NCBI RefSeq assembly: GCF_009758015.1
Contig: NZ_WSEL01000003.1
Coordinates: forward strand, 744,001-808,000
Source: Ramlibacter pinisoli
GTDB lineage: Bacteria; Pseudomonadota; Gammaproteobacteria; Burkholderiales; Burkholderiaceae_C
Length of the DNA: 64,000 nucleotides
Reading direction: 5' to 3'
The translations under genes were made by a program, and so were the position numbers. Positions 16,865 to 42,967 of this stretch are shown one piece after another. Position 1 is the stretch's first letter, and every line of letters starts with the position of its first letter. The notes below the pieces were generated by a model. The model was not told the DNA's origin, did not search any database, and saw nothing but the letters and a program-made list of their open reading frames with translations.

Positions 16865-16880
16865 TTGGACCAAAGGCCAA
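16865..16880. promoter_or_regulatory. TTGGAC-type palindrome, site 1
   Basis: TTGGACCAAAGGCCAA. Its complement, TTGGCCTTTGGTCCAA, differs at one base from the site at 42770. It lies between divergent hydrolase genes, 65 bp before ATG 16946 and 100 bp before ATG 16764. It is one of six related sites in this window. Confidence 0.65.
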
Positions 16881-16945
16881 TGAGTGCACGCCTGGCTCGG
16901 GTGCAAGATGCAGGCCCCGCGAGAGCGGTTCCCGCCGTAGGTTCC

Positions 16946-17941
16946 ATGCCCAGCGTCCGGATCGACAACGCGCAGGTTCATTTCCAGCTCGCCGGCGGCG
17001 AGCGCGGGCCCGTGATCACCTTCCTCAACGGGCTGACCCAGAACGCGAACCTCTGGACCGCCTACGCCGACTACTTCGGGCCGCGTGGCTATCGGGTGCT
17101 GGCCTACGACATGCTGGGGCAAGGGCGCTCCTCCAAGCCGGTGATCGACATCCCGCTGGCGGCGCATGCGGACCTCCTGGATGGCCTGCTCACCGAGCTG
17201 GGCATCCGCAAGACGCACCTGGCCGGCATCTCCTTCGGCGGCGTGATCGCGCTGGACTTCGCCATCCGCTACGGCCACCGGCTGGACAGCCTGGTGGCCA
17301 TGAGCACCTTCGCCGAACTGACGCCCCAGCTCGAATTCCTCGGCACGGTCATGCTGCAGGGCCTCATCGACGTGGGCTTCCCCTACATGCAAACCATGCT
17401 GTACCCGCTGAACATGAGCTCCGCCTGGATCGCCGCCAACCGCGAACGCATCCCGGCGATGAAGAGGTCTGGCTACATCGGCAACGACGGTTACGCGATG
17501 CAGAACCTGATGGAGTCCTTCGTCACGTTCCAGCCGCTCACGCCGGACCTGCACCAGATCGCCGTCCCCACGCTGCTCCTGAACGGCGAGTTCGACTTCT
17601 TCACGCCGCGCGAGTGCCACGACCTGATCCGCACCCGCATCGCCAACTCGCGCCTCGTGATCGTGCAGCACGCATACCACGCGTTCACGCTGGAATTGCC
17701 CGCGGTGACCATGCGGCAGATCGAGGTCTTCCTCGCGCAGGTGCGCGACGGCAGCTGGGTGGGCGACCAGAGCGTGTGGGCCGCCGCCGAGGACCCGAAG
17801 GCGCGCGTGCAGTGGCTGCCCCTGCTGGGCGACTGGCGCCGGGCCGTGCAGGTGGCAGCTGTGCGGCCGGTACGCGCCACGGCAAGTCCCGCGGCGAGGC
17901 GCAGCGGCGGCCGCTCGCCCGCGCGATTGGCGGCGCCGTGA
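16946..17941 (+). CDS. Alpha/beta hydrolase
   Basis: 331-residue hydrolase without a signal peptide. The triad is visible as Ser in GISFGG (about residue 97), Asp in NGEFDFF and His in HAYHAFTLE. An in-frame ATG at 16880 overlaps the palindromic site, so I prefer 16946 (MPSVRIDNAQVHFQL), where the fold begins. The last 70 residues are Arg/Ala-rich and poorly structured. The stop overlaps the GTG start of the next gene (GTGA, 17938-17941), indicating coupling. Ester hydrolysis is the likely chemistry; substrate unknown. Confidence 0.75.
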   Translation: MPSVRIDNAQVHFQLAGGERGPVITFLNGLTQNANLWTAYADYFGPRGYRVLAYDMLGQGRSSKPVIDIPLAAHADLLDGLLTELGIRKTHLAGISFGGVIALDFAIRYGHRLDSLVAMSTFAELTPQLEFLGTVMLQGLIDVGFPYMQTMLYPLNMSSAWIAANRERIPAMKRSGYIGNDGYAMQNLMESFVTFQPLTPDLHQIAVPTLLLNGEFDFFTPRECHDLIRTRIANSRLVIVQHAYHAFTLELPAVTMRQIEVFLAQVRDGSWVGDQSVWAAAEDPKARVQWLPLLGDWRRAVQVAAVRPVRATASPAARRSGGRSPARLAAP

Positions 17942-18552
17942 TCGCCCCCGAACTCTATGACCGGGCCCGGGACCGCGTGGCAGAAAGCGGGTTCACGGCG
18001 CCGGTGCAGACGCGCATCGCGCTGGTCCTCACGGCGGCCAAGAATGGCAACCTCGCATTCCACCTGCTGATGCAATGGGTGCCGGGAATGGGGCTCGCGC
18101 AGCAGTTCCTCATCTCCCAGGCGGCCCGCGAGATGGAAGCGATCACGTTGCTCGCCCGCACCACGCAATGGCTCGGGACGCCGGCGGCGCTGGTCCAGGC
18201 TGGCCGCATCACGGCGCCGCTGGCGATGGCGTGGAGCCGCGTGATGCAGGCGCCCGGCCCGCTGTTCAGCCCGGACGCCGCGTACCGCGGCCTCTCTCTG
18301 GGACATGCGCAGTTCGCGCGCATCCGCCTCGCGCCCATCGTGCCGGAGGCTGCGGACCCGGCGGCACCGTTCGTGATGGCGCTGGCGCGCATCGAGCAGG
18401 AGAACGCGCGCATGCTCCAGACGCAGATCCGCCTGCTGAAGGTGATTGGCGACAACCTGCCCCTCGCGGAACGCGAGGAGCGGATCGAGGCCGACCAGGC
18501 GCTCGTCGACGGCGTGATGACGGAGTTCCTCGGCTGGATGGCGGCGCCGTAG
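17938..18552 (+). CDS. Hypothetical helical protein
   Basis: 204 residues beginning at GTG, coupled to the preceding hydrolase by a 4-bp overlap. The composition is alpha-helical, with a hydrophobic Leu/Ala/Met-rich middle (residues 25-105) and a charged C-terminal helix. No signal peptide or conserved catalytic motif is recognised. Its place between two alpha/beta hydrolases in a tight operon suggests an accessory or partner role, but I do not recognise the family. Confidence 0.6.
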   Translation: MIAPELYDRARDRVAESGFTAPVQTRIALVLTAAKNGNLAFHLLMQWVPGMGLAQQFLISQAAREMEAITLLARTTQWLGTPAALVQAGRITAPLAMAWSRVMQAPGPLFSPDAAYRGLSLGHAQFARIRLAPIVPEAADPAAPFVMALARIEQENARMLQTQIRLLKVIGDNLPLAEREERIEADQALVDGVMTEFLGWMAAP

Positions 18553-18581
18553 CCGCCCGGCCCTTGCACCAGGAGAAGCAG

Positions 18582-19442: not shown

Positions 19443-19910
19443 TCAGCCGAAGGTGGCGAAGCCGAGCATGGTGGTGATGGCCACGAGGCCGAGCAGGAAC
19501 ACCAGCGCGGCCGTCACGAGCGTGAACGAGGGCGGGAACACGCTCTCGCCGTGGATGAGGCCTTCGGCCGTCATCTGCTCGCGGGTCCTGCGCAAGCCCA
19601 GCATGAAGGCGACGTGGTACACGATGCCGATCAGCAGCATGACGAGTGCGACCAGCACGAACGCCAGGCCGAAGTTGCGCGAGGCGTTCGCGTCGTCGAC
19701 CATGCCGGCCGCTTCGAGCTTCTCGAACACCTGGTAGATGGTGAAACCGAAGCCGATGAGGGAAATCGCCGTCCGGATCACCGACATGAGCGTGCGGTCG
19801 GCGCTCATGCGCGTGCGCTGGAACGACATGCCGGTGCGGCGCCGCGCCAACTCGGTGTTGGCGTCGGGCTCCGGTGTCCGCGCTTCACGGGATCTCAGGT
19901 CAACGTCCAT
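19443..19910 (-). CDS. DUF202 family inner-membrane protein
   Basis: 155 residues. A charged N-terminus contains the DUF202 signature region (RTRMSADRTLMSVIRTAISLIGFGF). Three predicted membrane helices follow, at about 45-65, 82-105 and 132-152. YidH/DUF202 proteins are small membrane proteins of unknown function, often found with stress genes. It is the last gene of the nine-gene minus-strand operon, 48 bp after the DUF1254/DUF1214 protein. Confidence 0.85.
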   Translation of the reverse strand: MDVDLRSREARTPEPDANTELARRRTGMSFQRTRMSADRTLMSVIRTAISLIGFGFTIYQVFEKLEAAGMVDDANASRNFGLAFVLVALVMLLIGIVYHVAFMLGLRRTREQMTAEGLIHGESVFPPSFTLVTAALVFLLGLVAITTMLGFATFG

Positions 19911-19958
19911 GGACCACCTCCCTGCCGGGCTCGACCGGCGGCGTGCGACTCGCGTCGC

Positions 19959-21467
19959 TCATGCCTCTCGGGCGACCGATTTCTGCACGTCCGGCAGCCG
20001 GTAGCTGCCGTCGAGCAGCGGCGGCGTCGGCACGTAGGTGCGCACCAGCAGCGCGAACTGCCCAGCCGGCGCGGGCAGCCAGTTGGCACGCGCGTCCGCC
20101 TCGGGCGGTTCGGCGTGCGACAGGTGCAGCACCAGCGAACCGTCGGACGCGAACGCCAGCTCGTTCGCGTCGAGGTTGACGGTGCCGATGTTGTGGCGGC
20201 CGTTGGGACTGTCGGGGACCATGAAATAGTCCTGGTCGTACATGGTCAGCGACCAGAAACCGCCGCGGTCGCGGTCCACCGGCGGCAACGCGCCCTTGGG
20301 AAAGGTCACCGTGTAGCGATAGCGGCCCTGCAGCAGCTCCCCCTGCGCATCGGTGCCGCGGATGAAGTAGATCGCCTCGTGGAAGTCGTTGACGTAGATG
20401 TAGATGACCGCCGCCTGCGCGCGGCCGAACCAGTCGCTGCCCCAGGCGCCGCCATTCTCCTGACGCTGCCAGCCGTTGCCGGCAGCGGCGCCGGCCTGGT
20501 GGTACTTCGCCGACTCGTGCAGCTCCGCGTTCGCCGCCAGCGTGGTGCGGTCGACCAGCGCGCGCCAGGCCGGGTCCACAGCGCGCAACGCGAGCAGCAC
20601 GCGCGCCTGCGCCGCCATCGGCGCGTCGTCGGTGCTGACGCGCGGATTCGCGTCCAGCGCCACCTGGAGGTCGTCCCAGAACGTGAGCGCGTTCACGGGC
20701 CGGTGCCGCAGCAGGTCGGGATCGGCCGCCAGCATGTCGGCCGTCAGTCCTCGCGGAAAGACCTTGTTGCGCGCGCTCGCCTCGCAGTCGAACCGCAGCG
20801 GGCCCGGCCTGTCCTCCTTCTGGGGCACGGCGCCCAGCTGGTTCAGCACGGAACGGGCCTGCGCCTTCGCCTCCGGCGTGCGCGCCGCGAAGCAGCGGAA
20901 CATCAGGACGGCGAGGTTCGTCGGGGAGCGCAGCACGCCGAGGAAGCCCGGCGGCTTCTCGCCCTGCCAGTCCGGCCCGACCACCAGGAACTTGCCGCCC
21001 GGTGTGCGTGAGGCGGAGCCGATCTGGTGCGTGACCGTGGTGAACAGGTCGGCCATCTGCACCGTCCAGTAGTGGCCGGGCGGCACCTGCGACGGCGTCT
21101 GCAGCACGACGCTGTCCTCGGCGAGGTCCGCGAAGCAGGCGCCGTAGATGGTGTCGTTGTTGGGCGTGACCACCTTGCGCTGCAGCGCAGACATGTAGTC
21201 GTCGAGATAGCCGGTGTGGTTCTTCGGCGCGCCCGGGAACAGGCCCAGGGTCGCGCCGGGGCCGGCCCCCTTCATCGCCTCCCAGCAGCTGGTGCGGCCG
21301 TACGTGTTGACGGCCGGATAGCCCCAGTAGAAGAGGATGCGCGCGAGTGATTCGACGTACTTCTCGTTGGCCAGCCGCGCCGGAGCGCCGGCGCCATCGG
21401 GCAGGTCGGCATGCGCAGGGCTCAAGGCGCGGGCGAGCGCCTCGGGTTGCAGGGCGGATTCCTTCAT
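19959..21467 (-). CDS. DUF1254/DUF1214 domain protein
   Basis: 502 residues without a signal peptide. The N-terminal half carries the DUF1254 pattern (YWGYPAVNTYGR, VVTPNNDTIYG, GHYWTVQMADLF). The C-terminal half carries DUF1214 (FPKGALPPVDRDRGGFWSLTMYD, then FMVPDSPNGRHNIG). The biochemical activity of the family is not established. The start codon overlaps the stop of the DUF1622 gene (ATGA, 21464-21467), and GGAGG precedes the ATG. A second, diverged DUF1254 protein is encoded in the same operon at 25799. Confidence 0.85.
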   Translation of the reverse strand: MKESALQPEALARALSPAHADLPDGAGAPARLANEKYVESLARILFYWGYPAVNTYGRTSCWEAMKGAGPGATLGLFPGAPKNHTGYLDDYMSALQRKVVTPNNDTIYGACFADLAEDSVVLQTPSQVPPGHYWTVQMADLFTTVTHQIGSASRTPGGKFLVVGPDWQGEKPPGFLGVLRSPTNLAVLMFRCFAARTPEAKAQARSVLNQLGAVPQKEDRPGPLRFDCEASARNKVFPRGLTADMLAADPDLLRHRPVNALTFWDDLQVALDANPRVSTDDAPMAAQARVLLALRAVDPAWRALVDRTTLAANAELHESAKYHQAGAAAGNGWQRQENGGAWGSDWFGRAQAAVIYIYVNDFHEAIYFIRGTDAQGELLQGRYRYTVTFPKGALPPVDRDRGGFWSLTMYDQDYFMVPDSPNGRHNIGTVNLDANELAFASDGSLVLHLSHAEPPEADARANWLPAPAGQFALLVRTYVPTPPLLDGSYRLPDVQKSVAREA

Positions 21468-21826
21468 GTTGCCTCCGTGGGACGAGCGCTCTCGTGCTGC
21501 CGCTCGCGCACCTCCGCGAGGTCGCGCTCGAGAAAGTAGTTGAGGAAGGTGCGGATCACGGCGATGGCAGCCAGCCGGGCGATGGACTCCCAGTCCTCGG
21601 TGATCGCGGTCTCGACGATGTCGGCGGCGAGCTGGAAGGTGAGGCCCGCCACCAGCCAGCGCGCGTAGCGCAGCCAGACGTCGCGCCGCAGGTGGCCGTC
21701 TGGCTTCGCCACCACCCCCAGCCCTGTCACGACTGCCTGCAGCGTGCCGAACAAGATGACCAGCAGGGCGATGCCGTCGATCAGCACGATCGCCGCCTCG
21801 GTGAGGGAGACCAGCCACTCGCGCAT
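21464..21826 (-). CDS. DUF1622 family membrane protein
   Basis: 120-residue inner-membrane protein with helices at about 8-36, 55-75 and 84-105; the pattern VLIDGIALLVILFGTLQAV followed by RYARWLVAGLTFQLAADIVETA fits DUF1622. Function unknown. It begins 3 bp after the sulfatase stop and overlaps the following DUF1254 start by 4 bp, so it is translated as part of the operon. Confidence 0.85.
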   Translation of the reverse strand: MREWLVSLTEAAIVLIDGIALLVILFGTLQAVVTGLGVVAKPDGHLRRDVWLRYARWLVAGLTFQLAADIVETAITEDWESIARLAAIAVIRTFLNYFLERDLAEVRERQHESARPTEAT

Positions 21827-21829
21827 GGT

Positions 21830-23254
21830 TCACCTGGGCGGTTTGTAGGGATCGGGCGTTCCCATGGGAATGAGCGGGTGCGCCTTCAGGCTCGCCTCGA
21901 ACGCGGCGACCAGCTTCAGCACGGGCCCGACCACCCAGCTGTCCAGGCTGGGCTTGTCCTCGTCTTCCCGCGGGTTCTGGTACAGGTTGAACAGCAGCGG
22001 AATGCCCAGCTTTACCGCCGGCGACACCATGGTGTCCTGCCGGTAGAAGTGGACTTTGTAGTTGCGCCACTTCACAGCCTGCAGCCGCTCCGCGCAGAAG
22101 ACCAGGATGCCTTCGCGCGCGGAGGCCTCGGCCTGCCCGAGCAGCAGCGGCGACTGGTCCACGCCGTCGATGGGCCGGTCGCCCGGCACCGAAGCGCCCG
22201 CGAGCTTCGCGAGGGTCGGGAACAGGTCCACGGCATGCACGATGGCATCGCTCACCCGCCCGGCCGGCACGCGCTCCGGCCAGCGCACGATGCAGGGCAC
22301 GCGGATTCCGCCCTCCCAGGCCGTGAAGTACTGGCCGCGCCATGGGCCCGCCCAGCCATCCCAGGGTTTCACGAACTCGGGGCCGTTGTCGCTGGCGAAG
22401 AGGACGATGGTGTTCTCGCGCAGGCCCAGCCGGTCGACCGCGTCGAGCATGCGGCCGACGTTGGCATCCATCTCGGCCAGCATGTCGGCCCAGTCGCCGT
22501 TGCCGGTGCGGCCGGCGAACTCCGGGTGCGGCAGCGTGGGCAGGTGCGGCTGCGTGAGCGTGGCGTAGGCGAAGAAGGGCTTGCCGGCGTGCGCCTGTGC
22601 CTCCATGAATGCGACAGTGCGGCGCGCGATCTCCGCGTCCATCAGGCGGCGCTGCTCCAGGTCGTAGACACGCACGGGGCGGGTCCGCTCGCCCTTGCGT
22701 CCTTCCAGGATCTGCTCGGGCGGCATGACGGCGGCCGACCAGCCGGGCATGCCGGGCCACATCGCCTCGTCGGTCGTGCGCGGGATGCCGTACCACTCGT
22801 CGAAGCCCTGGTTGGTGGGGAAGCGCCCTTCCTCGCTGCCCAGATGCCACTTGCCGAACAGCGCGCTTGCGTACCCGGCGGCGCCGAGCGACTCGGCCAG
22901 CGTCACCTCCCACTGCGTGAGCCCGTCGGCGACGCCGCCGAAGGGCACGGAGTGCGTGCCGGAGCGGATGGCGTAGCGCCCGGTGAGGATGGCCGAGCGG
23001 CTGGGCGTGCACTGCGCCTCCATGTTCATGTTGGTCAGGCGCAGGCCTTCAGCGGCCAGCCGGTCGATCCGGGGCGTGGCCGCGCCGCGTGTCCTGCCGC
23101 CGCCATAGACGCCCAGCTCGCCGTAGCCCAGGTTGTCCGCGAGCATGAAGAGGATGTTGGGCCGGCGCGCCGGCTGCGCCCGCACCGGCGTGGCATCGCC
23201 CAGCAGCGCGGTGCCGGCCAGCGCCGCCTGCAGCAGCGACCGGCGCGAGGTCAT
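21830..23254 (-). CDS. Exported type I sulfatase (arylsulfatase-like)
   Basis: 474 residues. The twin-arginine-like signal (SRRSLLQAALAG, cleavage near residue 26) fits export after cytoplasmic maturation. Formylglycine precursor Cys82 is in the canonical CTPSR; metal ligands are in LADNLGYGE and FASDNGPE, and GKWHLG supplies active-site Lys/His. The C-terminus ends IPMGTPDPYKPPR. The start overlaps the stop of the formylglycine-generating enzyme (ATGA, 23251-23254), which places maturase and substrate on one message. A mutated, internally deleted relative lies at 31207. The sulfated substrate is unknown. Confidence 0.9.
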   Translation of the reverse strand: MTSRRSLLQAALAGTALLGDATPVRAQPARRPNILFMLADNLGYGELGVYGGGRTRGAATPRIDRLAAEGLRLTNMNMEAQCTPSRSAILTGRYAIRSGTHSVPFGGVADGLTQWEVTLAESLGAAGYASALFGKWHLGSEEGRFPTNQGFDEWYGIPRTTDEAMWPGMPGWSAAVMPPEQILEGRKGERTRPVRVYDLEQRRLMDAEIARRTVAFMEAQAHAGKPFFAYATLTQPHLPTLPHPEFAGRTGNGDWADMLAEMDANVGRMLDAVDRLGLRENTIVLFASDNGPEFVKPWDGWAGPWRGQYFTAWEGGIRVPCIVRWPERVPAGRVSDAIVHAVDLFPTLAKLAGASVPGDRPIDGVDQSPLLLGQAEASAREGILVFCAERLQAVKWRNYKVHFYRQDTMVSPAVKLGIPLLFNLYQNPREDEDKPSLDSWVVGPVLKLVAAFEASLKAHPLIPMGTPDPYKPPR

Positions 23255-24225
23255 GGCGGCGGGCCCGGCATCCGCCGCACGCAGCGGAACCCGACGTGGC
23301 TGGTGGAGGTGTCCACCGGCTGCGCGTGCCGCGCGGCGGGCCGGTAGCGGCGGCAGTAGTTGGGCGCGCACAGGTGCGAGCCGCCCTTGAGCACCTTGCG
23401 CGGGATGCGGATCTCCAGCTGGCACGGGTCGTAGCTTCCCTGCTCGCTCGCGCCGCGCGGGTTCACGGGGGCGCAGCAGGGCCGCGCCGCGCTGTCGGGG
23501 TGGCCCGCGGCATACCAGTCCTGGGTCCACTCCCACACGTTGCCGATCATGTCCAGCAGCCCGTAGCCGTTCGGCGGGAAGGCAGCCACCGGCGACGTGC
23601 GCTCGAAGCCGTCGACGCCGAGGTTCTCATGCGGAAAGCGGCCCTGCCAGGTGTTGGCCATGTGCCGCCCCTGCGGCGTGAACTCGTCGCCCCAGGCGAA
23701 TTCCGCGCCGTCGAGCCCGCCGCGAGAGGCGAACTCCCACTCGGCTTCCGTCGGCAGCTGCTGGCCGGCCCAGGCCGCGTAGGCCTGGACGTCGCACCAG
23801 GCAACGTGCACCACGGGATGATCGTCCTTGCCGTCGATGCTGCTGCCCGGGCCCTGCGGATGGCGCCAGTCGGCACCGAAGCGGAACTGCCACCACTGCG
23901 AGAAGTCGCGCAGATCCACCGCGTGGCGCGGCGGCGTGAACACCAGCGACGCCGGCTGCAGCATCTCCGGCAGCGCGCCGGGATAGTCTTTCGCCTCGGG
24001 CGCGATCTCGGCGAAGGTGACGTGGCCGGTCGCCTCGACGAAGGCGCGGAACTGCGCATTGGTGACGGGGGTGCGGTCGATCCAGAAGCCGTCGACCCGC
24101 ACCAGGTGCACGGGCTTTTCCTCGGGGTAGTGCGCGTCGGAGCCCATGCGGAAGGCGCCGCCGGGGACCCAGACCATGGCACCCGCATTTTGAGCGGTGC
24201 CGACGGTGTCGCTGACTGCGCTCAT
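23251..24225 (-). CDS. Formylglycine-generating enzyme (sulfatase-maturing, FGE/SUMF1 type)
   Basis: 324-residue oxygen-dependent maturase that converts the sulfatase active-site Cys to formylglycine. The FGE-sulfatase fold runs from MVWVPGGAFRMGSD to VGFRCVRR, and the copper-binding catalytic cysteines Cys286 and Cys291 are present in SHLCAPNYCRRYRPAARH. Many SUMF-like domains lack this pair, so this one should be active. The start could be ATG 24225, chosen because GAGG precedes it, or ATG 24237. It sits directly between the two operon sulfatases. The enzyme requires O2, which matters for any low-oxygen interpretation of the regulon. Confidence 0.92.
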   Translation of the reverse strand: MSAVSDTVGTAQNAGAMVWVPGGAFRMGSDAHYPEEKPVHLVRVDGFWIDRTPVTNAQFRAFVEATGHVTFAEIAPEAKDYPGALPEMLQPASLVFTPPRHAVDLRDFSQWWQFRFGADWRHPQGPGSSIDGKDDHPVVHVAWCDVQAYAAWAGQQLPTEAEWEFASRGGLDGAEFAWGDEFTPQGRHMANTWQGRFPHENLGVDGFERTSPVAAFPPNGYGLLDMIGNVWEWTQDWYAAGHPDSAARPCCAPVNPRGASEQGSYDPCQLEIRIPRKVLKGGSHLCAPNYCRRYRPAARHAQPVDTSTSHVGFRCVRRMPGPPP

Positions 24226-24238
24226 CGCGCCTCGCATC

Positions 24239-25768
24239 TCAACTGCTGCCCGCGGCGGAATCCCCCATCTTCGCGATCGCGTCGTCGATGGTGAAGGTGT
24301 TGGGCCGCTGGATCGGCGGGAAGTCCTTGAAGGTCTCCGCGAACTTCGCCGCCGCGGCTTGCGCCGCGAACATGAAGTAGCCGTGGTAGAGAAACCAGTC
24401 GTAGTACGAGTTGGACGTGACGTCCGCGGACTCGTAGGGGTCGGTGCGCAGGTTGAACATCTTGGGCACGCGCAGCCGCGTGAACGGCTCGGCCCAGACC
24501 TGCAGGGTGCCCTGGCAGCGCTGCTCCATGAAGACGATCTTCCAGTTGTCGTAGCGCAGGGCCAGGATGTCGCCGTCGTCGCTGATGTAGAAGAAGAACT
24601 GGCGTGGCGCCTCCTTCTGCTTGCCGATCAGGTAGGGCAGCAGGTCGTAGCCGTCGATGTGGTTCTTGTAGGTGCGCCCGATCGCCTTGTACCCGGACTT
24701 CAGCTTCTCCTTGACCTCGGGCGCGCCGGCCATGGCCAGGAAGGTGGGCAGCCAGTCGTGGTGCTGCACGATCCCGTTGCACACCGAGCCGGCCTCGATC
24801 CTGCCCGGCCAGCGCACCAGCATCGGGATGCGGAAGGCGCCTTCCCAGTTGGTGTTCTTCTCGCTGCGGAAGGGCGTCATGCCGGCGTCCGGCCAGGTGT
24901 TGCGGTGCGGGCCGTTGTCGGTGGAGTACTGGACGAAGGTGTCCTTCGCGATCCCCAGTTCGTCCAGCAGGTCGAGCATCTGGCCGACGTTGCGGTCGTG
25001 GTCGATCATCGTGTCGTGGTAGGGCGACTGCCAGCGCCCCGCCTGGCCCAGGCTGGACTCCTTGGTGTGGGTGATGAAGTGCATGTGCGTGGTGTTGACC
25101 CACACGAACCAGGGCTTGCCGGCCTTCTCCTGGGCGCGGATGAACGCCTGCGCCTTGGCGACGAAGTCGTCGTCGCAGGTCTCCATGCGCTTCCTGGTGA
25201 GCGGCCCCGTGTCCTCGATCTTCTGCTTGCCCACCCGTCCCCAGCGCGGCTGCTCGGTCGGGTCGTCCTTGTCGGTGGCCCAGGAATGGATCACGCCGCG
25301 CGGCCCGAACCTCTCGTGGAATGCCGGGTCCTTCGGGTAGTCGACCATCTCCGGCTCTTCCTCGGCGTTCAGGTGGTACAGGTTGCCGTAGAACTCGTCG
25401 AAGCCGTGGTTGGTGGGCAGCATGTGGTTCAGGTCGCCCAGGTGGTTCTTGCCGAACTGGCCGGTGGCGTAGCCCTGCTCCTTCAGCAGCGCCGCGATGG
25501 TCACGATCTTGTCGGACATGCCGACTGGTGCACCGGGGGTGCCCACCTTCGATAGCCCCGTGCGGTACACGCTCTGCCCCGTGATGAACGACGACCGCCC
25601 CGCGGTGCAGGACTGCTCGCCGTAGGAATCGGTGAACAGCATCCCTTCCTTCGCGATCCGGTCGATGTTGGGGGTGCGGTAGCCCATCAGACCGTGCGTG
25701 TAGCAACTCAGGTTGGACTGCCCGATGTCGTCGCCCCAGATGACGAGGATGTTGGGCTTCTTGGCCAT
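24239..25768 (-). CDS. Type I sulfatase (CTAGR variant)
   Basis: 509 residues without a signal peptide, so cytoplasmic unless exported by another route. Cys54 is in CTAGR, an accepted variant of the CxPSR formylglycine motif. IWGDDIGQSN supplies metal ligands, GKNHLGD the Lys/His and YSTDNGPHRNTWP a further metal site. The overall layout resembles arylsulfatase A-like enzymes, a family that also includes phosphonate monoester hydrolases. AAAGGAG precedes the ATG. The maturase is encoded 13 bp downstream. Confidence 0.88.
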   Translation of the reverse strand: MAKKPNILVIWGDDIGQSNLSCYTHGLMGYRTPNIDRIAKEGMLFTDSYGEQSCTAGRSSFITGQSVYRTGLSKVGTPGAPVGMSDKIVTIAALLKEQGYATGQFGKNHLGDLNHMLPTNHGFDEFYGNLYHLNAEEEPEMVDYPKDPAFHERFGPRGVIHSWATDKDDPTEQPRWGRVGKQKIEDTGPLTRKRMETCDDDFVAKAQAFIRAQEKAGKPWFVWVNTTHMHFITHTKESSLGQAGRWQSPYHDTMIDHDRNVGQMLDLLDELGIAKDTFVQYSTDNGPHRNTWPDAGMTPFRSEKNTNWEGAFRIPMLVRWPGRIEAGSVCNGIVQHHDWLPTFLAMAGAPEVKEKLKSGYKAIGRTYKNHIDGYDLLPYLIGKQKEAPRQFFFYISDDGDILALRYDNWKIVFMEQRCQGTLQVWAEPFTRLRVPKMFNLRTDPYESADVTSNSYYDWFLYHGYFMFAAQAAAAKFAETFKDFPPIQRPNTFTIDDAIAKMGDSAAGSS

Positions 25769-25798
25769 GCGATCTCCTTTGGGTGCTGTCGGTTGCGG

Positions 25799-27037
25799 TC
25801 AAGCCCTGAGCAAGGGCGGCGGGAAGTAGCAGCGGTCCGCCACCGCGCCCCTCGCACGGTAGAAGCGGAAAGTCAGGCTGTAGGGCGTGCCCTTGGGCGT
25901 GGGCAGCCAGTTGGACGGCGGCTCACCCGCCGGCGGCTGGTCACCGAAGGTCAGGGTGAGGGACCCGTCGGGGCCACTTGCCACGCCGGATTCCGGGTTG
26001 AGCAGATAGCGCTTGAGCGGATTGGGCAGCACACGCCGCTCGACCGCGTCGACCGCGATCACGGACCAGAAGAACGTGGCGAAGTTCTCGGGTCGCTGGT
26101 CCCGGGTGAACGTCATGCGATAGGCGTGGTCCCCGTTCAGGGGTTGGCCCTCGTTGTCCACCATGCCCTTGTAGTAGACGACTTCCTGCGGCGTGTTGGC
26201 CCAGATCCCGCCGTAATTGATCAGCGTGCGCACCAGCCAGTCGTCGCCATACACGCCGGAGGTCGACGGCAGCACCCAATGGTTGCGGACCTCGCCGTGG
26301 CCCAGGACGGCCATCGCCTTGTGGAGGTCGTCCATGGCGCGCGTGCGCACGGCTGCATCCACGCGCTGGCGCTGCGCCGGGTCGCGCACCGCCAGCGCGA
26401 GTGCCCGCGTGCCCGCCTGCAGCTGTTCCATGCCGGGGTTGATGTCGGCCTCGCTGTCCAGTGCGGCCAGCGCCGAATCGAAGGCCTCTACGCCGGGCAG
26501 CGCCCGGAGTTCGAACATCGGCGTCGGGGGAACCACCGGCGGCACGGCCAGGCCGGCGGAACGGAACTCGAACTGGTGCTGCAGCGACTCCGCCCCCGCC
26601 CAGTCCGCGCCCAGTTGCACGCGCAGCAGCACCCGCATGGCGGTGACCGGCACCTCGACCCGCTGGACGCCGGCCGGCAGGCTGGGGCTGCTGCCCTTCA
26701 GGCAGACGGCGAACTCGCCGTGCGGATGGTCCGGAAACACGCGCTCGTTGATGTTGGCGACCGTCTCACCCCAGCCGTTGAGGAACTGCACCGTGTAGTA
26801 GCGGCCGCGGATCTCCGGCACCGTCACCCGCAGCGGATCGTTCGCGGCGATCACGACCCAGGCCTCGGAGTAGGCGACGTCGAGGTTGGGGTTGGGCCAC
26901 ACCACGCCCCCCGGCTTGCGGTGCACCAGCTGGTTCCAGCGGAAGCCTTCCTCGACATCGAGCCGCTGCTGGCGCAGCACGAGCAGGCGGCCGAGGAGGT
27001 AGAGGTACGCGTCGCTGATGGCCTTGTCGCTTGGCAT
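25799..27037 (-). CDS. DUF1254/DUF1214 domain protein
   Basis: 412 residues with no signal peptide. DUF1254-like elements (WPNPNLDVAYSEAWV, RGRYYTVQFLNGWGE) precede a DUF1214-like C-terminal region (WANTPQEVVYYKGMVDNEG, FFWSVIAVDAVERRVLPN, PPSNWLPTPKGTPYSLTFR). It is a diverged paralogue of the 19959 gene. ATG 27037 is preceded by AAGGA; an in-frame GTG at 27061 overlapping the upstream stop has no ribosome binding site. Activity of the family unknown. Confidence 0.85.
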   Translation of the reverse strand: MPSDKAISDAYLYLLGRLLVLRQQRLDVEEGFRWNQLVHRKPGGVVWPNPNLDVAYSEAWVVIAANDPLRVTVPEIRGRYYTVQFLNGWGETVANINERVFPDHPHGEFAVCLKGSSPSLPAGVQRVEVPVTAMRVLLRVQLGADWAGAESLQHQFEFRSAGLAVPPVVPPTPMFELRALPGVEAFDSALAALDSEADINPGMEQLQAGTRALALAVRDPAQRQRVDAAVRTRAMDDLHKAMAVLGHGEVRNHWVLPSTSGVYGDDWLVRTLINYGGIWANTPQEVVYYKGMVDNEGQPLNGDHAYRMTFTRDQRPENFATFFWSVIAVDAVERRVLPNPLKRYLLNPESGVASGPDGSLTLTFGDQPPAGEPPSNWLPTPKGTPYSLTFRFYRARGAVADRCYFPPPLLRA

Positions 27038-27057
27038 GTCGTTCCTTGGCGCAGCAC

Positions 27058-31776: not shown

Positions 31777-31792
31777 CTCCAGGAGCATGACC

Positions 31793-34156: not shown

Positions 34157-34245
34157 CGGACGGAGCCCTTCTTGGACCGGTCCTGGCCCTTGCCGGATGT
34201 CGAGCGGGTCCAGGTCTCGCGACAGCCCTGACCAGGAGCAAAGCA

Positions 34246-36615
34246 ATGAGCGCGAACGATTCCATCCAGCGCAGCGTCCTGCCAATCCCCGACCGCAAGC
34301 CGGTCACCGTCACGACCTACGAGGCCAAGGACCCCGACACCAGGTTTGCGCCCATCACCCAGCTGCGGCCGCCCGCGGGAGCGCCCAACGTGCTCGTGAT
34401 CCTGCTGGACGACGTCGGCTTCGGGGCATCGAGCGCGTTCGGCGGGCCGTGCAGGACGCCGACCGCGGAGCGACTCGCCGCCAACGGCCTGAAATACAAC
34501 CGCTTCCACACCACCGCCCTGTGTTCGCCCTCGCGGGCCGCGATGCTGTCGGGGCGCAACCACCACGCCGTCGGCATGGGAAGCATCACCGAGATGGCCA
34601 CCTCGGCGCCCGGCTACAACTCGATGCGCCCGAATACCTGCGCGCCGCTGGCGGAGATCCTCAAGCTCAATGGCTATTCGACGGCGCAGTTCGGCAAGTG
34701 CCACGAAGTGCCGGTGTTCGAGTCGTCGCCGATCGGTCCCTTCGATCGCTGGCCCACCGGTTCGGGCTTCGAGCACTTCTACGGCTTCATCGGCGGCGAG
34801 GACAACCAGTACTACCCCGCTCTCTACGACGACACGGTGCCGGTGCAGCCAGACCGCGGACCCGAGGACGGGTACCACCTGACGGAAGACATTGCCGACA
34901 AGGCCATCGCCTGGGTCCGCCAGCAGAAGTCCCTCGCGCCAGATAAGCCTTTCTTCATCTACTTCGCTCCGGGGGCGACGCACGCCCCCCATCACGTCCC
35001 CCAGGAGTGGATCGCCAGATACAAGGGCCGCTTCGACCAGGGGTGGGACCAGGTGCGCGAGGAGACCTTCGCCCGCCAGAAGAAGCTGGGCGTGATCCCG
35101 GCGGACTGCGAATTGACGGCGCGCTCGGAAGGCATTCCGGCGTGGAGCGAGACCGACCCGAAACTCAGGCCGGTGCTGGCGCGGCAGATGGAGATCTACG
35201 CGGCCTTCCTGGAGCACGCCGACTACCATGCCGGCCGCGTGATCGACGCGCTGGCCGACCTGCGCGTCCTGGACGACACGCTCGTCTACTACATCATCGG
35301 CGACAACGGCGCGTCCGCCGAAGGCACGTTGAACGGCTCGTTCCACGAGCAGGCGGTGGGCGAAGCGCCCGACCTGATGACCCCCGAGTTCCTGATGGAG
35401 CGCATCGACGACTTCGGGACGCCGCGCGCGAACAACCACTACGCGGTGGGCTGGGCCCATGCCATGAACACGCCCTACCAGTGGACCAAGCAGGTCGCCT
35501 CGCACTTCGGCGGCACCCGCAACGGAACGATCGTGCACTGGCCCGGGGGCATCCGGGCGAAGGGTGAGCTGCGCAGCCAGTTCCACCACGTGATCGACGT
35601 CGCCCCCACGGTGCTGGAAGCTGCCGGCCTGCCGCATCCGACCTTCGTGAACGGCGTGCAGCAGGAGCCGCTGCACGGGGTCAGCATGCTGTACTCCTTC
35701 GGCGACGCGCAGGCGGCAGAGCGGCACGAGACCCAGTACTTCGAGATGGTCTGCAACCGTGGCATCTTCCACAAGGGCTGGATGGCCGTCACCCGCCATG
35801 GCAATCCGCCCTGGGTCGTGATCGGAAAGCAGGGTCCGCTCGCGGACGACGTCTGGGAGCTGTACGACACCAACCAGGACTGGACGCAGGCGCACGACCT
35901 GGCTGGGCGGATGCCGCAAAAGCTCGCCGAGCTGCAGCGGCTGTTCGAGCTCGAGGCCGGCAAGTACAACGTGTTCCCGCTGGACGACCGCAAGGCGGAG
36001 CGGGCCAATCCCGACATCGCGGGCCGTCCGACGGTCGTGCGCGGATCCACCCAACTGCTGTTCCCGGGCATGCGCCGCATCCAGGAGAACGCGGTCATCA
36101 ACACCAAGAACAAAGCGCACTCGGTGACCGCCGAACTCGAGATCGCCGATGCCGGTGCCCGGGGCGTGATCGTCGCCCAGGGCGGCAGCATGGGCGGCTG
36201 GGCGCTGTACGCGCATGAAGGCAAGCTGCGGTACTTCTACAACTTCCTCGGTGTCCAGCATTCCGCGGTGACGGCCGCAGGGCCGCTGCCGGCGGGCAAG
36301 CACCAGGCACGCATGGAGTTCGCCTATGACGGCGGCGGCATGGGCAAGGGCGCGACCGTGACGCTGTATGTCGACGGCCAGCCGGTGGGCTCCGGCCGTG
36401 TCGAGCGGACCCACGCGCTGTTCTTTTCCATGGATGAAACCGCGGAGGTGGGGTGCGACCTCGGCGAGCCGGTGTCGCCGGACTACGGTCACCGCGACAA
36501 CGCCTTCAACGGCAAGATCCAGTGGGTGCAGATCGACATCGACAAGGCCACCCAGGATGCGGACCACCTGGTGGCGGCGGAGGAACGCTTTCGGCTCATC
36601 ATGGCGCGGCAATAG
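34246..36615 (+). CDS. Large arylsulfatase (tandem copy 2)
   Basis: 789 residues, a paralogue of the preceding gene over its full length. It shares the opening QRSVLPIPD, Cys93 in CSPSR, GKCHEV, ATHAPHHVPQEW, IGDNGASAEG and the C-terminal beta-rich module with MEFAYDGGGMGKGATVT. Differences are concentrated in residues 190-215 and 355-385, likely substrate-facing loops. AGGAG precedes ATG 34246. The 89-bp gap to copy 1 contains GGACCGGTCC, which lacks the 2-bp spacer of the regulon palindrome. It is probably co-transcribed with copy 1. Confidence 0.9.
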   Translation: MSANDSIQRSVLPIPDRKPVTVTTYEAKDPDTRFAPITQLRPPAGAPNVLVILLDDVGFGASSAFGGPCRTPTAERLAANGLKYNRFHTTALCSPSRAAMLSGRNHHAVGMGSITEMATSAPGYNSMRPNTCAPLAEILKLNGYSTAQFGKCHEVPVFESSPIGPFDRWPTGSGFEHFYGFIGGEDNQYYPALYDDTVPVQPDRGPEDGYHLTEDIADKAIAWVRQQKSLAPDKPFFIYFAPGATHAPHHVPQEWIARYKGRFDQGWDQVREETFARQKKLGVIPADCELTARSEGIPAWSETDPKLRPVLARQMEIYAAFLEHADYHAGRVIDALADLRVLDDTLVYYIIGDNGASAEGTLNGSFHEQAVGEAPDLMTPEFLMERIDDFGTPRANNHYAVGWAHAMNTPYQWTKQVASHFGGTRNGTIVHWPGGIRAKGELRSQFHHVIDVAPTVLEAAGLPHPTFVNGVQQEPLHGVSMLYSFGDAQAAERHETQYFEMVCNRGIFHKGWMAVTRHGNPPWVVIGKQGPLADDVWELYDTNQDWTQAHDLAGRMPQKLAELQRLFELEAGKYNVFPLDDRKAERANPDIAGRPTVVRGSTQLLFPGMRRIQENAVINTKNKAHSVTAELEIADAGARGVIVAQGGSMGGWALYAHEGKLRYFYNFLGVQHSAVTAAGPLPAGKHQARMEFAYDGGGMGKGATVTLYVDGQPVGSGRVERTHALFFSMDETAEVGCDLGEPVSPDYGHRDNAFNGKIQWVQIDIDKATQDADHLVAAEERFRLIMARQ

Positions 36616-37867: not shown

Positions 37868-37883
37868 TTGGCTCTTGGTCCAA
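37868..37883. promoter_or_regulatory. TTGGAC-type palindrome, site 4
   Basis: TTGGCTCTTGGTCCAA matches the 42770 site at 13 of 16 positions, with the outer TTGG/CCAA arms and the whole right half intact. It lies 71 bp before the DUF3300 start codon. Confidence 0.6.
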
Positions 37884-37954
37884 TTGCCCGGGACGGATCC
37901 GCGACAAAAACTCGCTGCGCTGGGTGCCGGATCGAAGCCATCCAGCACCGAACG

Positions 37955-39484
37955 ATGCCCAAACAACGCTGCATGCGCGTTCCGCTCCTCAGCGGAAGCT
38001 TGGCCCTGGTGCTCGTCACCGGTCAAGTCAGCGCCCTGGCGCAGCCCATGAGCGGCACTCCGCCCGCAGCGGGTCCTGTGAACACGGTCAACGCGGCGCC
38101 CACTTTCGTGCCCGAGGAACTCGAGGCGCTTGTCGCACCGATCGCGCTATACCCGGACTCGCTCCTTGCGCAGGTCCTGATGGCCTCGACCTACCCCTTG
38201 GAGGTCGTGCAAGCCGCGCGCTGGGTCAAGGCCAACACAAGCGTGAAGGGAGAAGCGGCCGTCCGGGCGGTGGCGGACAAGACCTGGGACGTCAGCGTGA
38301 AGTCCCTCGTGGCCTTTCCGCAGGTGCTCGAGCCGATGGACGACCGGCTCGACTGGACGCAGAAACTGGGTGATGCGTTTCTCGCGCAACAAAAGGACGT
38401 GCTGGACGCCGTGCAGCGCCTGCGGCTGAAGGCCCAGGGCAACGGCAACCTCAAGACGACGGAGCAGCAGAACGTGATCGTGGACCAGGCACCGTCCGGG
38501 GGCGCGCAGCAGACGATCGTCCGCATCGAACCGGCCAACCCGGAGGTGATCTACGTCCCGACGTATGACCCCACCTATGTCTACGGCAGTTGGGGGTACC
38601 CGGCCTATCCGCCCTACTACTGGCCGCTCTATCCCGCCTACTACCCTGGGTACTATCCCGGCTACTACGTCGGCGCCGGGATCGCCTTTGGCGTCGGCTT
38701 CGCGGTGGGGGCCGCCATCTTCGGTGGCTGCAACTGGAGCGGTGGCGAGGTCAACGTCAACGTGAACCGGGCCGCCAACATCGATCGCAACTTCGATCAC
38801 AACCGGGGACAGGGCGCCAACGGGCGATGGCAGCACGATGCCGGTCACCGCAAGGGCGTCTCCTATCGCGACAACGCGACGCGCGAAAGGTTCGGCAAGA
38901 ACGTGGGGGGCGCCGACGGACGTGCCGGCTTCCGCGGCTTCGACGGCCTCGGCAACCGCGCCGCTGGCGGCAGTCCGGGCGGTACGGGCCGGCGCGGGAG
39001 CGCCGGCGAGGGCGGCGCAGCCCGGAACTTCGGCGGTGGTGCTTCCGCCGGAATCGCTGGCGATGCAAGGACTGGCGGGGCGCCTGGGGGCGGTGCTTCA
39101 GCGGGGCGGACCATGCCTTCCAGGGGGTTGGAGGCGGCAGTGCCACGCAGCGGGATTTCAGTCGCGGACTGGCCACGACCCAGCAGTCTTCTGCCAACCG
39201 ACCGACCGCGGGCGCCAGCCGCAGCGGTGGTGCCAGTCGGGCAAGTGTCGGCGGGGGTGCGCGCGGCGGTGGTGGGCGCGGCGGCGGCGGTCGACGCTGA
39301 GGAGCAACGCCATGGATGCGATCAGGAAACGACAATCTGCGGCCGCGCGACTTGCGAGGCGCGGCCTGCCAGCACTCTTGCTCGTCCTGGCCGCAGCCGC
39401 TGCGAACGCGAACAAGAACTTCAACTCACCCCAGGCAGCGATGGAAGCCCTCGGGCAGGCGGTCTCCAGCGGCGACGAAGCTGA
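37955..39484 (+). CDS. DUF3300 exported protein, frameshifted near the C-terminus
   Basis: Signal peptide (ending LAQ) followed by the DUF3300 core: LVAPIALYPDSLLAQVLMASTYPLEVVQAARW, VKSLVAFPQVLEPM and a Tyr/Pro-rich stretch (YGSWGYPAYPPYYWPLYPAYYPGYY). The frame as read runs to 39484, overlapping DUF2950 by 170 bp. One frame away, the sequence from about 39105 to a stop at 39300 encodes the expected family ending (FQGVGGGSATQRDFSRG, then a GGGGRGGGGRR tail). A one-base loss in the G-rich run at 39101-39108 explains this; the natural end is probably 39300. It could be an assembly error or a true frameshift. Function unknown; often paired with DUF2950. Confidence 0.75.
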   Translation: MPKQRCMRVPLLSGSLALVLVTGQVSALAQPMSGTPPAAGPVNTVNAAPTFVPEELEALVAPIALYPDSLLAQVLMASTYPLEVVQAARWVKANTSVKGEAAVRAVADKTWDVSVKSLVAFPQVLEPMDDRLDWTQKLGDAFLAQQKDVLDAVQRLRLKAQGNGNLKTTEQQNVIVDQAPSGGAQQTIVRIEPANPEVIYVPTYDPTYVYGSWGYPAYPPYYWPLYPAYYPGYYPGYYVGAGIAFGVGFAVGAAIFGGCNWSGGEVNVNVNRAANIDRNFDHNRGQGANGRWQHDAGHRKGVSYRDNATRERFGKNVGGADGRAGFRGFDGLGNRAAGGSPGGTGRRGSAGEGGAARNFGGGASAGIAGDARTGGAPGGGASAGRTMPSRGLEAAVPRSGISVADWPRPSSLLPTDRPRAPAAAVVPVGQVSAGVRAAVVGAAAAVDAEEQRHGCDQETTICGRATCEARPASTLARPGRSRCEREQELQLTPGSDGSPRAGGLQRRRS

Positions 39485-41628: not shown

Positions 41629-41670
41629 GGCAGCCCTCGTCGCATGGGGTGGGATTGAACTCGTCGGGCT

Positions 41671-42702
41671 TCAGGCCTCCGCCGTCATTCGCAGCACGAC
41701 CCGGCCCTCGATGTGGCCGTCGCGCAGTCGGTTCAGCACGTCGTTCACGTTGTCCAACGAATCGGTGCTGCACACGGTCCTGACCTTGCCCTCAGCCGCG
41801 AATGCGATGGCCTCCTGCAGGTCCTTGCGCGTGCCCACGATGGAGCCGCGCACCGTCTTGGCATTGAGCACCATGTCGAAGATGGGCAGCGGGAAGTCGC
41901 CCGGCGGCAGGCCCACCATGGACATGGTCCCGCGCTTGTGCAGCATGCCCAGCGCCTGCCCGAACGCCGCCCGCGACACCGCCGTGACCAGCACACCGTG
42001 CGCACCGCGCAGTTCCTTCTGGATCACCTGCACCGGGTCCTGCGTGGAGGCGTTCACCGTCATGTCGGCACCCAGCTTGCGGGCCAGCGCCAGCTTGTCG
42101 TCGCCCACATCCACGGCCGCGACGTGCAAGCCCATGGCCTTGGCGTACTGCACCGCCACGTGGCCGAGCCCGCCGATGCCCGAGATCACGACCCAGTCGC
42201 CCGGCTTGCAATCCAGCGCCTTCAGGCCCTTGTAGACGGTGACGCCGGCACACAGGATGGGCGCGATCTCGGTGAATCCGACGTTGGACGGAAGGTGGCC
42301 GACGTAGCCCGGGTCGGCCAGCACGTAGTCGGCATAGCCACCGTTGACGGTGTACCCCGTCATCTGCTGCTGGTCGCACAGCGTCTCCCAGCCGGTGATG
42401 CAGAACTCGCAGTGCCCGCACGAGGTGTGCAGCCAGGGAACGCCCACCCGGTCGCCCTCTCGCACGTTCTTCACGTCCGCACCCACGGCGGACACGTGGC
42501 CCACGCCCTCGTGCCCCGGGATGAAGGGCAAGGACGGCTTGACCGGCCAGTCGCCGTCGGCCGCATGCAGGTCGGTGTGGCACACGCCCGATGCCGCCAC
42601 CTTCACCAGCACGCGGTTGCGCGGCACCTCGGGAACCGGAACCTCCTCGATGACGAGCGGCTGGCGGAAGGAATGGACGACGGCTGCCTTCATCTTCGCC
42701 AT
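41671..42702 (-). CDS. adhP: Zinc-dependent alcohol dehydrogenase (AdhP-like)
   Basis: 343-residue medium-chain dehydrogenase. Catalytic zinc ligands are Cys41, His64 and Glu65 (GHEGVGH) with a third Cys near 152 (APILCAGVT). Structural zinc ligands are Cys95, Cys98, Cys101 and Cys109 (CGHCEFC...LC). The NAD motif is GIGGLGH. It should interconvert alcohols and aldehydes with NAD(H), for example ethanol formation. The TTGGAC palindrome lies 67 bp upstream of the ATG. Proximity to pflBA suggests a fermentative branch, which is inference. Confidence 0.9.
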   Translation of the reverse strand: MAKMKAAVVHSFRQPLVIEEVPVPEVPRNRVLVKVAASGVCHTDLHAADGDWPVKPSLPFIPGHEGVGHVSAVGADVKNVREGDRVGVPWLHTSCGHCEFCITGWETLCDQQQMTGYTVNGGYADYVLADPGYVGHLPSNVGFTEIAPILCAGVTVYKGLKALDCKPGDWVVISGIGGLGHVAVQYAKAMGLHVAAVDVGDDKLALARKLGADMTVNASTQDPVQVIQKELRGAHGVLVTAVSRAAFGQALGMLHKRGTMSMVGLPPGDFPLPIFDMVLNAKTVRGSIVGTRKDLQEAIAFAAEGKVRTVCSTDSLDNVNDVLNRLRDGHIEGRVVLRMTAEA

Positions 42703-42769
42703 GATTGGACTCCTCTGGACAGGACCGATGATTTTGCGCGCCGCCCCGGGAAGCACATCTACGGAGACA

Positions 42770-42785
42770 TTGGACTTTGGTCCAA
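42770..42785. promoter_or_regulatory. TTGGAC-type palindrome, site 5 (best copy)
   Basis: TTGGACTTTGGTCCAA is a perfect palindrome with 6-bp arms and a 4-bp spacer, extended to 7 bp by flanking A/T (ATTGGAC...GTCCAAT, 42769-42786). It lies 67 bp before the adhP start, and together with site 6 occupies the 369-bp divergent region 42703-43071, which holds no gene. Confidence 0.72.
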
Positions 42786-42951
42786 TACGCCCTGAACGTG
42801 CACGTCGGACACGCTCCCGCCATGGCGGACGGTTTCGTGCGGTCGGTCACAGCAGCGTCCAGTGTGCCCGCATGCACCGGTTTCGATGAATGCAGCAACG
42901 CTTCGTTCAGCAGCCCGGGATCTGGCCCCGACGCCCGAAGCCGCCCTGCGG

Positions 42952-42967
42952 TAGGACCAAGGTCTGA
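42952..42967. promoter_or_regulatory. TTGGAC-type palindrome, site 6
   Basis: TAGGACCAAGGTCTGA keeps the GGACC-AA-GGTC core; its complement matches site 5 at 12 of 16 positions. It lies 104 bp before the DUF190 start and is the weakest member. Confidence 0.5.

What the first reader, a model, noticed from the sequence alone, without database searches (positions are those of the whole stretch)
16865..42967. Six copies of a TTGGAC-N4-GTCCAA palindrome define a probable 26-kb regulon
The sequence shows a 16-bp palindrome at 42770 (TTGGACTTTGGTCCAA) with related copies at 16865 (15/16 on the complement), 31113 (14/16), 28986 and 37868 (13/16) and 42952 (12/16). All six lie in non-coding DNA, 48-104 bp before a start codon: the alpha/beta-hydrolase pair, the nine-gene sulfatase operon, the arylsulfatase cluster, DUF3300/DUF2950, adhP and DUF190. 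The TTGGA-N6-TCCAA geometry equals that of CRP half-sites (TGTGA-N6-TCACA) but the bases differ from CRP and FNR boxes. No regulator gene is in the window. The common site is the strongest sign that these poorly characterised genes form one functional system.
Basis: partly seen in the sequence, partly recalled or inferred. Interest (0 to 1): 0.88.

Follow-up and report, generated by a model that had tools for sequence, protein, structure and literature searches.

The report
A FixJ-type regulator's genome-wide switch
The six repeated DNA signals are very probably real promoter switches, part of a genome-wide set of about 28 that is most likely turned on by an uncharacterised two-component regulator encoded elsewhere in the genome, linking sulfatase, fermentation and unknown-function genes.

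Summary
The six sites are at the stated coordinates, between genes. The refined box TNGGACCWWGGTCCNA (<=2 mismatches) returns exactly these six (0.39 expected). The genome holds 28 boxes (<=1 mismatch) against 0 reversed controls, so a 26-kb regulon is too narrow: 12 of 28 cluster on another contig around a FixL-like kinase, a FixJ-type response regulator and a CheY protein. Five of 39 other same-genus genomes have 11-24 boxes, some before rearranged orthologues. In 35 of 64 single-target boxes a -10 element starts 23 bp downstream, an activator-type position near -51 to -36; five of six window sites fit. Among 80 regulator loci from many phyla, boxes occur in 19 of 22 with recognition helix xKT[VI]K and 0 of 58 others, though common descent is not excluded.

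Verdict: operator of a StyR/DosR-like FixJ-family regulator, not CRP-type; new variant of a known kind. Binding, activation and signal are untested; low oxygen or energy stress is my inference.

The parts
16865..16880 (+). box 1, TTGGACCAAAGGCCAA (2 mismatches to TNGGACCWWGGTCCNA); putative -10 CAAGAT at 16904-16909
   Evidence: -10 at offset 23 on + strand
16946..18552 (+). alpha/beta-hydrolase (16946-17941) and a 204-aa gene without Pfam match behind box 1; a further alpha/beta-hydrolase follows at 18582-19439
28986..29001 (-). box 2, read on - strand TAGGACCAAGGTCCAC; putative -10 CACCAT at 28962-28957
19443..28937 (-). nine-gene run behind box 2: SBF transporter, HAD hydrolase, DUF1254/1214, sulfatase, four genes not domain-scanned, DUF202. 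In G235 orthologues stand in separate units; three of these (L172, L174, L177) have their own box, the HAD orthologue (L176) has none upstream
31113..31128 (+). box 3, TGGGACCAAGGTCCAA (0 mismatches); putative -10 AACCAT at 31152-31157
31207..36615 (+). sulfatase cluster: N-terminal sulfatase fragment (start 31207 or 31264, end 31776) and two full sulfatases (31793-34156, 34246-36615); the G235 orthologue of the last (78%) has a perfect box 32 bp upstream, close to the regulator module
37868..37883 (+). box 4, TTGGCTCTTGGTCCAA (2 mismatches); putative -10 AAAACT at 37907-37912
37955..39484 (+). DUF3300 gene (start uncertain: ATG 37955, 37973 or 38048, or GTG 38078); a G251 homologue (56% over 282 aa) has a box 202 bp upstream
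42770..42785 (+). box 5, TTGGACTTTGGTCCAA (1 mismatch to the refined box); weak -10 CACGCT at offset 24 on + strand (42810-42815), none at offset 23 towards adhP
41671..42702 (-). adhP alcohol dehydrogenase (NCBIfam AdhP, 350 bits, cut-off 344); the least certain target
42952..42967 (+). box 6, TAGGACCAAGGTCTGA (1 mismatch); putative -10 TAGGCT at 42991-42996
43072..46803 (+). DUF190 gene (43072-43383), pyruvate formate-lyase (43662-45920, formate C-acetyltransferase equivalog, 1114 bits) and a radical-SAM, activase-like gene (45937-46803) behind boxes 5 and 6

Best explanation
The palindrome, better written TNGGACC(A/T)(A/T)GGTCCNA with a usual T just after it, is the operator of a FixJ/NarL-family response regulator encoded at G000:C9:209176-209802 (L017:11176-11802), next to a FixL-like PAS histidine kinase and a stand-alone CheY receiver. 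A phosphorylated dimer would place its two GerE recognition helices (E-K-T-V-K-V-H-R) on the two GGACC half-sites. The box lies at about -51 to -36, so bound regulator would recruit sigma-70 RNA polymerase as an activator. In this genome there are 28 boxes (<=1 mismatch): in the regulator's own cluster (near CheY, Lnb_N, patatin-Omp85, Ysc84, bestrophin-like genes) and elsewhere, among them the window's sulfatases, hydrolases, DUF3300 and the pyruvate formate-lyase operon, and genes for an L-lactate-dehydrogenase-like protein, PPK2, CoA-transferase, DUF3141 and an MscS channel. Shown by computation: motif, enrichment, recurrence before orthologues, promoter spacing, co-occurrence with this regulator class. 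Inferred: binding by this protein, phosphorylation, activation and the signal.
For: 28 boxes (<=1 mismatch) vs 0 reversed-pattern controls in the genome. Of 115 boxes (<=1 mismatch) in six same-genus genomes, 112 lie outside called genes. Same genus, 40 genomes: seven in which I found an xKTxK regulator have 119 boxes vs 13 controls, the other 33 have 15 vs 49; in ten of those 33 I read one regulator's helix each (two in G242), none xKTxK. In all seven a box (<=2 mismatches; 4 of 7 at <=1) lies between the FixJ-type and CheY genes. -10 letters at offset 23: 35 of 64 single-target boxes against 0-8 at each other offset from 0 to 59, and 5 of 64 in the wrong direction; window: 5 of 6 sites, binomial p 1.5e-6. 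DUF3141 genes are box-linked in 6 of 6 genomes, a 116-aa family in 5 of 6. Nine-gene-operon orthologues in G235 sit in three units each with its own box. Other phyla: 19 of 22 xKTxK loci vs 0 of 58 others, Fisher p 1.3e-15; in 12 of 22 a box (<=1 mismatch) lies 25-113 bp past the regulator match. DosR peptide FLAEKTVKNYVSRL has the same E-K-T-V-K; its Lys179 and Lys182 contact bases (PMC5861037, PMC4082495, passages).
Against: No binding or expression data. The regulator tree gives one independent contrast on well-supported branches, so the helix-box link may largely be common descent. Outside the genus the genome-wide excess is small: 71 boxes vs 49 controls in 22 xKTxK genomes, 32 vs 45 in 24 others, p 0.019; there the boxes are mostly local. 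In 30 DUF3300 loci across the phylum 2 have a box at <=2 mismatches (one is the window's own) against 1 control. The HAD gene of the nine-gene operon has a G235 orthologue with no box upstream. Helices were not read in 23 of the 33 box-poor genus members. The kinase here lacks the MASE1 sensor of four relatives. The genome has 22 other GerE matches and a CRP-type gene 5.4 kb from the cluster's first box. adhP and the PFL operon have no box-linked orthologue in the relatives' stretches.
Confidence: 0.85

Rival explanations
1. A sub-hypothesis on function rather than a competitor: the same regulon and operator, whose role is adaptation to low oxygen or energy limitation, as for the mycobacterial DosR regulon.
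For: Box-linked genes include formate C-acetyltransferase with a radical-SAM activase-like gene, AdhP, an L-lactate-dehydrogenase-like protein (271 bits, below its cut-off of 303.55), PPK2 and CoA-transferase. The kinase's best solved relatives are FixL chimeras. The recognition helix shares E-K-T-V-K with DosR. DUF3300/DUF2950 are reported induced in nodule transcriptomes (PMC4653623, passages).
Against: PFL and AdhP are box-linked only in this genome among the stretches seen. The commonest shared targets (DUF3141, a 116-aa family, a solute-binding protein) do not point to oxygen. No heme or oxygen sensor was shown.
Confidence: 0.35
2. A CRP/FNR-family dimer binds the palindrome; a CRP-type gene lies 5.4 kb from the first box of the C9 cluster.
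For: 16-bp palindrome with 5-6-5 geometry; CRP-type gene nearby.
Against: The boxes track the FixJ-type gene in seven same-genus genomes and in 19 of 22 xKTxK loci elsewhere. I did not search the relatives for CRP-type genes. That the sequence is unlike CRP and FNR boxes is recalled.
Confidence: 0.04
3. Another GerE regulator of the genome (for example a CrbR-type protein, whose ACTU motif is similar and sits at -52 to -36) binds these boxes, alone or with the FixJ-type protein.
For: ACTU motif similar in layout and position (PMC5715377, passages); 23 GerE matches in the genome; a 141-aa GerE protein with a similar helix lies in the cluster.
Against: The box-rich genomes are those in which an xKTxK regulator was found next to a box. 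I did not look for a CrbR orthologue here.
Confidence: 0.1
4. The sites are a repeat element or chance palindromes without regulatory function.
For: The loose pattern is not enriched in the window.
Against: Refined box, promoter spacing, intergenic placement and recurrence before orthologues.
Confidence: 0.01

Closest known systems
StyR/TodT/TutB/TmoT operators (FixJ-type regulators of aromatic catabolism)
   Same: Closest solved regulator is StyR (1yio, E 3.2e-45). Its group's proposed operator ATAAACN4GTTTAT has the same 6-4-6 layout (PMC5874301, passages).
   Different: Half-site GGAC instead of AAAC; helix E-K-T-V-K instead of E-V-T-V-K; no aromatic-catabolism gene recognised among the targets scanned.
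DosR/DevR box and regulon of Mycobacterium, and OsdR of Streptomyces
   Same: Helix E-K-T-V-K with the two base-contacting lysines; OsdR has a 16-nt palindrome AGGGCCGATCGGCCCT (PMC5069765, passage); the promoter-proximal Dev box overlaps -35 (PMC3029386, passage). The DosR consensus GGGACTWWAGTCCC is recalled.
   Different: Inner base pair C/G instead of T/A (against the recalled consensus); Asn183 replaced by Val; kinase with PAS, or MASE1-PAS in relatives, unlike DosS/DosT (recalled); no universal-stress or HspX-like gene among the targets scanned.
CrbR ACTU motif (Pseudomonas)
   Same: LuxR-family response regulator; similar inverted repeat, e.g. TACTACCATCGTCGAAT before acs; same position, -52 to -36, immediately before the RpoD promoter; mutation abolishes activation (PMC5715377, passages).
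   Different: Outer bases differ; CrbS carries an SLC5 domain; known targets concern acetate utilisation.
FixLJ
   Same: Kinase best matches FixL chimeras; regulator matches FixJ (5xso, E 6.8e-38).
   Different: FixJ's helix reads R-T-I-E; 0 of 35 loci whose helix has Glu there carried the box.

Membership tests
NarL/FixJ-family two-component regulon | Receiver plus GerE output domain in the regulator | tested here: met
   Pfam Response_reg 86 bits, GerE 69.1 bits
NarL/FixJ-family two-component regulon | Kinase gene adjacent | tested here: met
   PAS-HisKA-HATPase gene overlaps the regulator gene by 4 bp
NarL/FixJ-family two-component regulon | Palindromic site next to the regulator's own gene, kept in relatives | tested here: met
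   7 of 7 same-genus modules at <=2 mismatches, 4 of 7 at <=1; 12 of 22 xKTxK loci within 113 bp of the match end
NarL/FixJ-family two-component regulon | Phosphorylation-dependent binding to the site | not testable with these tools
   needs protein
DosR/DevR regulon | Lys179 and Lys182 equivalents | tested here: met
   EKTVK in both
DosR/DevR regulon | Asn183 equivalent | tested here: not met
   Val in this genome's protein
DosR/DevR regulon | Universal stress protein or HspX-type targets | tested here: inconclusive
   none among the genes scanned, but not all box-linked genes were scanned
StyR/TodT group | ATAAAC half-sites | tested here: not met
   GGAC in the half-sites of 115 boxes; these were chosen by pattern, so the weight rests on their enrichment
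CrbS/R regulon | SLC5 domain in the kinase | tested here: not met
   kinase shows PAS, HisKA and HATPase only
CRP/FNR regulon | Boxes track a CRP-type gene | tested here: inconclusive
   one CRP-type gene 5.4 kb from the cluster's first box; relatives' CRP-type genes were not searched

The most novel reading that the evidence does not exclude
A FixJ-type regulator with a DosR-like Lys-Lys recognition helix and a GGACC-WW-GGTCC operator is an unrecognised, multi-phylum regulatory module (kinase, regulator, box, often CheY). It is mostly local in other hosts and expanded to 11-28 boxes in some species of the window's genus, where it runs a dormancy- or hypoxia-like programme and gives a first regulatory handle on DUF3300, DUF2950 and DUF3141.
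Probability: 0.35. Interest if true: 0.75.

Novelty: new variant of a known kind. Interest (0 to 1): 0.6.

Why it matters
It turns a loose set of poorly characterised genes into a testable regulon with a candidate regulator gene, a base-level operator and a predicted promoter position. It suggests a simple recognition-helix hypothesis (second residue Lys: GGAC; Val or Ile: other outer bases) for a large response-regulator family. It links DUF3300, DUF2950, DUF3141 and sulfatases to one signal, so one induction experiment could show what they respond to.

Tried and rejected
The loose TTGGACN4GTCCAA count in the window is no better than chance and was replaced by the refined box. The CRP/FNR reading was set aside because the boxes follow the FixJ-type gene; a CRP-type gene near the cluster stays on record as a rival. 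DUF3300 as a general carrier of the box failed: 2 of 30 loci at <=2 mismatches, one of them the window's own, vs 1 control. A large genome-wide regulon outside the genus is not well supported (p 0.019). A search for other palindromes after the regulator gene: class A 12 of 22 loci with a >=7/8-paired 16-mer (4.39 expected by mononucleotide shuffles), class B 8 of 22 (3.45), class C 10 of 35 (7.14); class B showed hints such as TTATACCAACGTATAA and TCATACCAAGGTATGA, from which I built no motif. Independence of the helix-box link could not be shown. The G231 and G265 regulators read E-K-T-V-H and have no box (<=2 mismatches) in the 5-kb stretches around them. Literature: the motif strings occur in 5 papers, seen as a search listing, on unrelated subjects; DUF3300 or DUF2950 in 3 papers; no paper holds 5 of MASE1, FixJ, CheY, histidine kinase, regulon, DUF3141; other listings showed no title on this box, but only the papers cited here were opened, PMC3333781 among them for passages, with no FixJ mention. 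These searches cover only the open-licence library. Two structure-prediction jobs were available and none was used.
Full report
OBSERVATION. The whole genome (G000, 5.5 Mb, 11 contigs; the window is C3:744001-808000) shows a tighter box. TNGGACCWWGGTCCNA at up to 1 mismatch gives 28 sites, while the pattern read backwards gives 0. The pattern was refined, so that last figure is partly post hoc; the tests in relatives, in other phyla and on promoter spacing do not depend on the window.

WHERE THE BOXES ARE. In my stretches of this genome, which were chosen around boxes, all 35 sites at up to 2 mismatches fall between genes called by a home-made codon scorer. Over six same-genus genomes 112 of 115 boxes at up to 1 mismatch do so.

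THE REGULATOR CANDIDATE. The C9 cluster holds a PAS histidine kinase (best solved relatives: FixL chimeras), a FixJ-type response regulator (best: StyR, then FixJ), a CheY-like receiver with a box on each side, and a 141-aa GerE protein. Genes in the cluster include Lnb_N, patatin-Omp85, Ysc84, DUF2950, DUF1254 and bestrophin-like ones and a second DUF3300 gene (C9:217488-218132).

RELATIVES. The exact pattern is found in this genome and 4 others of 150 order genomes. Among 80 family genomes (up to 1 mismatch) only this one has more than two. In 40 same-genus genomes the counts are uneven: 28, 24, 22, 18, 12 and 11 in six, 4 and 3 in two, 0-2 in 32. The six, and G262 with 4, carry the kinase/regulator/box/CheY module; the box between regulator and CheY is present in all seven at up to 2 mismatches, 4 of 7 at up to 1. 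Five genus members with a similar regulator but another recognition helix have 0 or 1 box. G231, with 3 boxes, and G265 have regulators reading E-K-T-V-H. I did not read helices in 23 of the 33 box-poor genomes. G183, of another genus, has a perfect box just before a FixJ-type gene of another class, about 1.5 kb from an xKTxK one.

RECURRENCE BEFORE ORTHOLOGUES. At up to 1 mismatch DUF3141 genes are box-linked in 6 of 6 genomes, a 116-aa family in 5, a solute-binding protein in 4, CheY in 4. The window's nine-gene operon is rearranged in G235: orthologues stand on L172, L174 and L177, each unit with its own box, while the HAD orthologue on L176 has none upstream. The window's last large sulfatase has a 78% orthologue with a perfect box close to the regulator module. 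In G251 two of the operon's genes (81-83%) follow a box by 1.1 kb or more. adhP and the pyruvate formate-lyase operon have no such support (all).

PROMOTER GEOMETRY. Downstream of 64 boxes with a single candidate target, the -10 letters (A at position 2, T at 6) occur at offset 23 in 35, against 6 and 8 at the neighbouring offsets 22 and 24 and 0-5 at the rest of offsets 0-59. Read in the wrong direction, offset 23 gives 5 of 64. For 46 divergent boxes read both ways it gives 36 of 92. This puts the box at about -51 to -36. In the window, 16865(+), 28986(-), 31113(+), 37868(+) and 42952(+) fit offset 23, and 42770(+) fits offset 24 only; p for 5 of 6 is 1.5e-6. Box 5 may thus serve the DUF190-PFL promoter rather than adhP.

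OTHER PHYLA. Boxes at up to 1 mismatch: 27, reversed control 0, in 1.29 Mb. By recognition helix: xKTxK 19 of 22 loci with a box; other xxTxK 0 of 22; xxTxE 0 of 35; one other 0. Twelve of the 22 have the box 25-113 bp past the regulator match. Three Desulfobacterales loci carry kinase, regulator and box with DUF3300 close by, two of them with DUF2950 and one with PPK2. Limits: one independent contrast on well-supported branches; whole-genome counts are low, 71 boxes vs 49 controls in the 22 xKTxK hosts against 32 vs 45 in 24 of the 58 others, p 0.019; DUF3300 genes at large lack the box.

MECHANISM. The helix E-K-T-V-K-V-H-R differs from StyR's E-V-T-V-K-V-H-R at one place in that stretch, and the operator differs from ATAAACN4GTTTAT (PMC5874301, passages) in the outer half-site letters. 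DosR has E-K-T-V-K-N-Y, and its Lys179, Lys182 and Asn183 contact bases (PMC4082495, PMC5861037, passages). I infer that the first lysine reads the GG step. CrbR's ACTU motif at -52 to -36 (PMC5715377, passages) is a tested activator site with nearly the same placement, which favours an activator role here.

FUNCTION. Genes next to boxes include formate C-acetyltransferase and a radical-SAM activase-like gene, AdhP, an L-lactate-dehydrogenase-like gene (271 bits, cut-off 303.55), PPK2, CoA-transferase, trehalose-phosphatase, MscS, DUF3141 and several unknowns; several boxes are divergent, so the controlled gene is not always resolved. In two relatives the box also precedes a GH63/MGH1-like protein, and in two an AI-2E-type transporter. 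Low oxygen or energy limitation is the reading I favour, at 0.35. DUF3300 and DUF2950 are reported as induced in nodule transcriptomes and of unknown function (PMC4653623, passages).

VERDICT.

Noticed in passing
L017:8884-9309 (G000:C9): 141-aa protein with a GerE domain and what looks like a shortened receiver, in the box cluster; its helix reads E-R-T-V-K. It could compete for boxes or be a decaying copy.
   Followed up: partly
window 31207-31776: N-terminal sulfatase fragment (matches profile positions 1-123 of 301) directly before two full-length sulfatases: a truncated duplicate or a remnant.
   Followed up: no
L046, L047, L059, L076 (after the regulator gene): Regulators with E-[VI]-T-[VI]-K helices are followed by other near-palindromes such as TTATACCAACGTATAA, CTATACCAAGGTGTAG and TCATACCAAGGTATGA, which hint at a helix-operator code.
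   Followed up: partly
L044 (Pyrinomonadaceae): Kinase, xKTxK regulator and CheY followed by a sulfatase (508 bits to the window's) without a recognisable box.
   Followed up: no
window 8789-9481 and 61795-62718: GntR/FadR-type and LysR-type regulator genes, contrary to the statement that the window has no regulator.
   Followed up: yes
L135, L137, L143, L145 kinases: Relatives' kinases carry a MASE1 membrane sensor that the window genome's 451-aa kinase lacks.
   Followed up: partly
L143, L141, L145, L151, L152: A second FixJ-type regulator with an E-R-T-[VI]-K helix followed by x-D-R sits near Ysc84 genes in five genomes, behind a box in some of them: a possible second tier.
   Followed up: no
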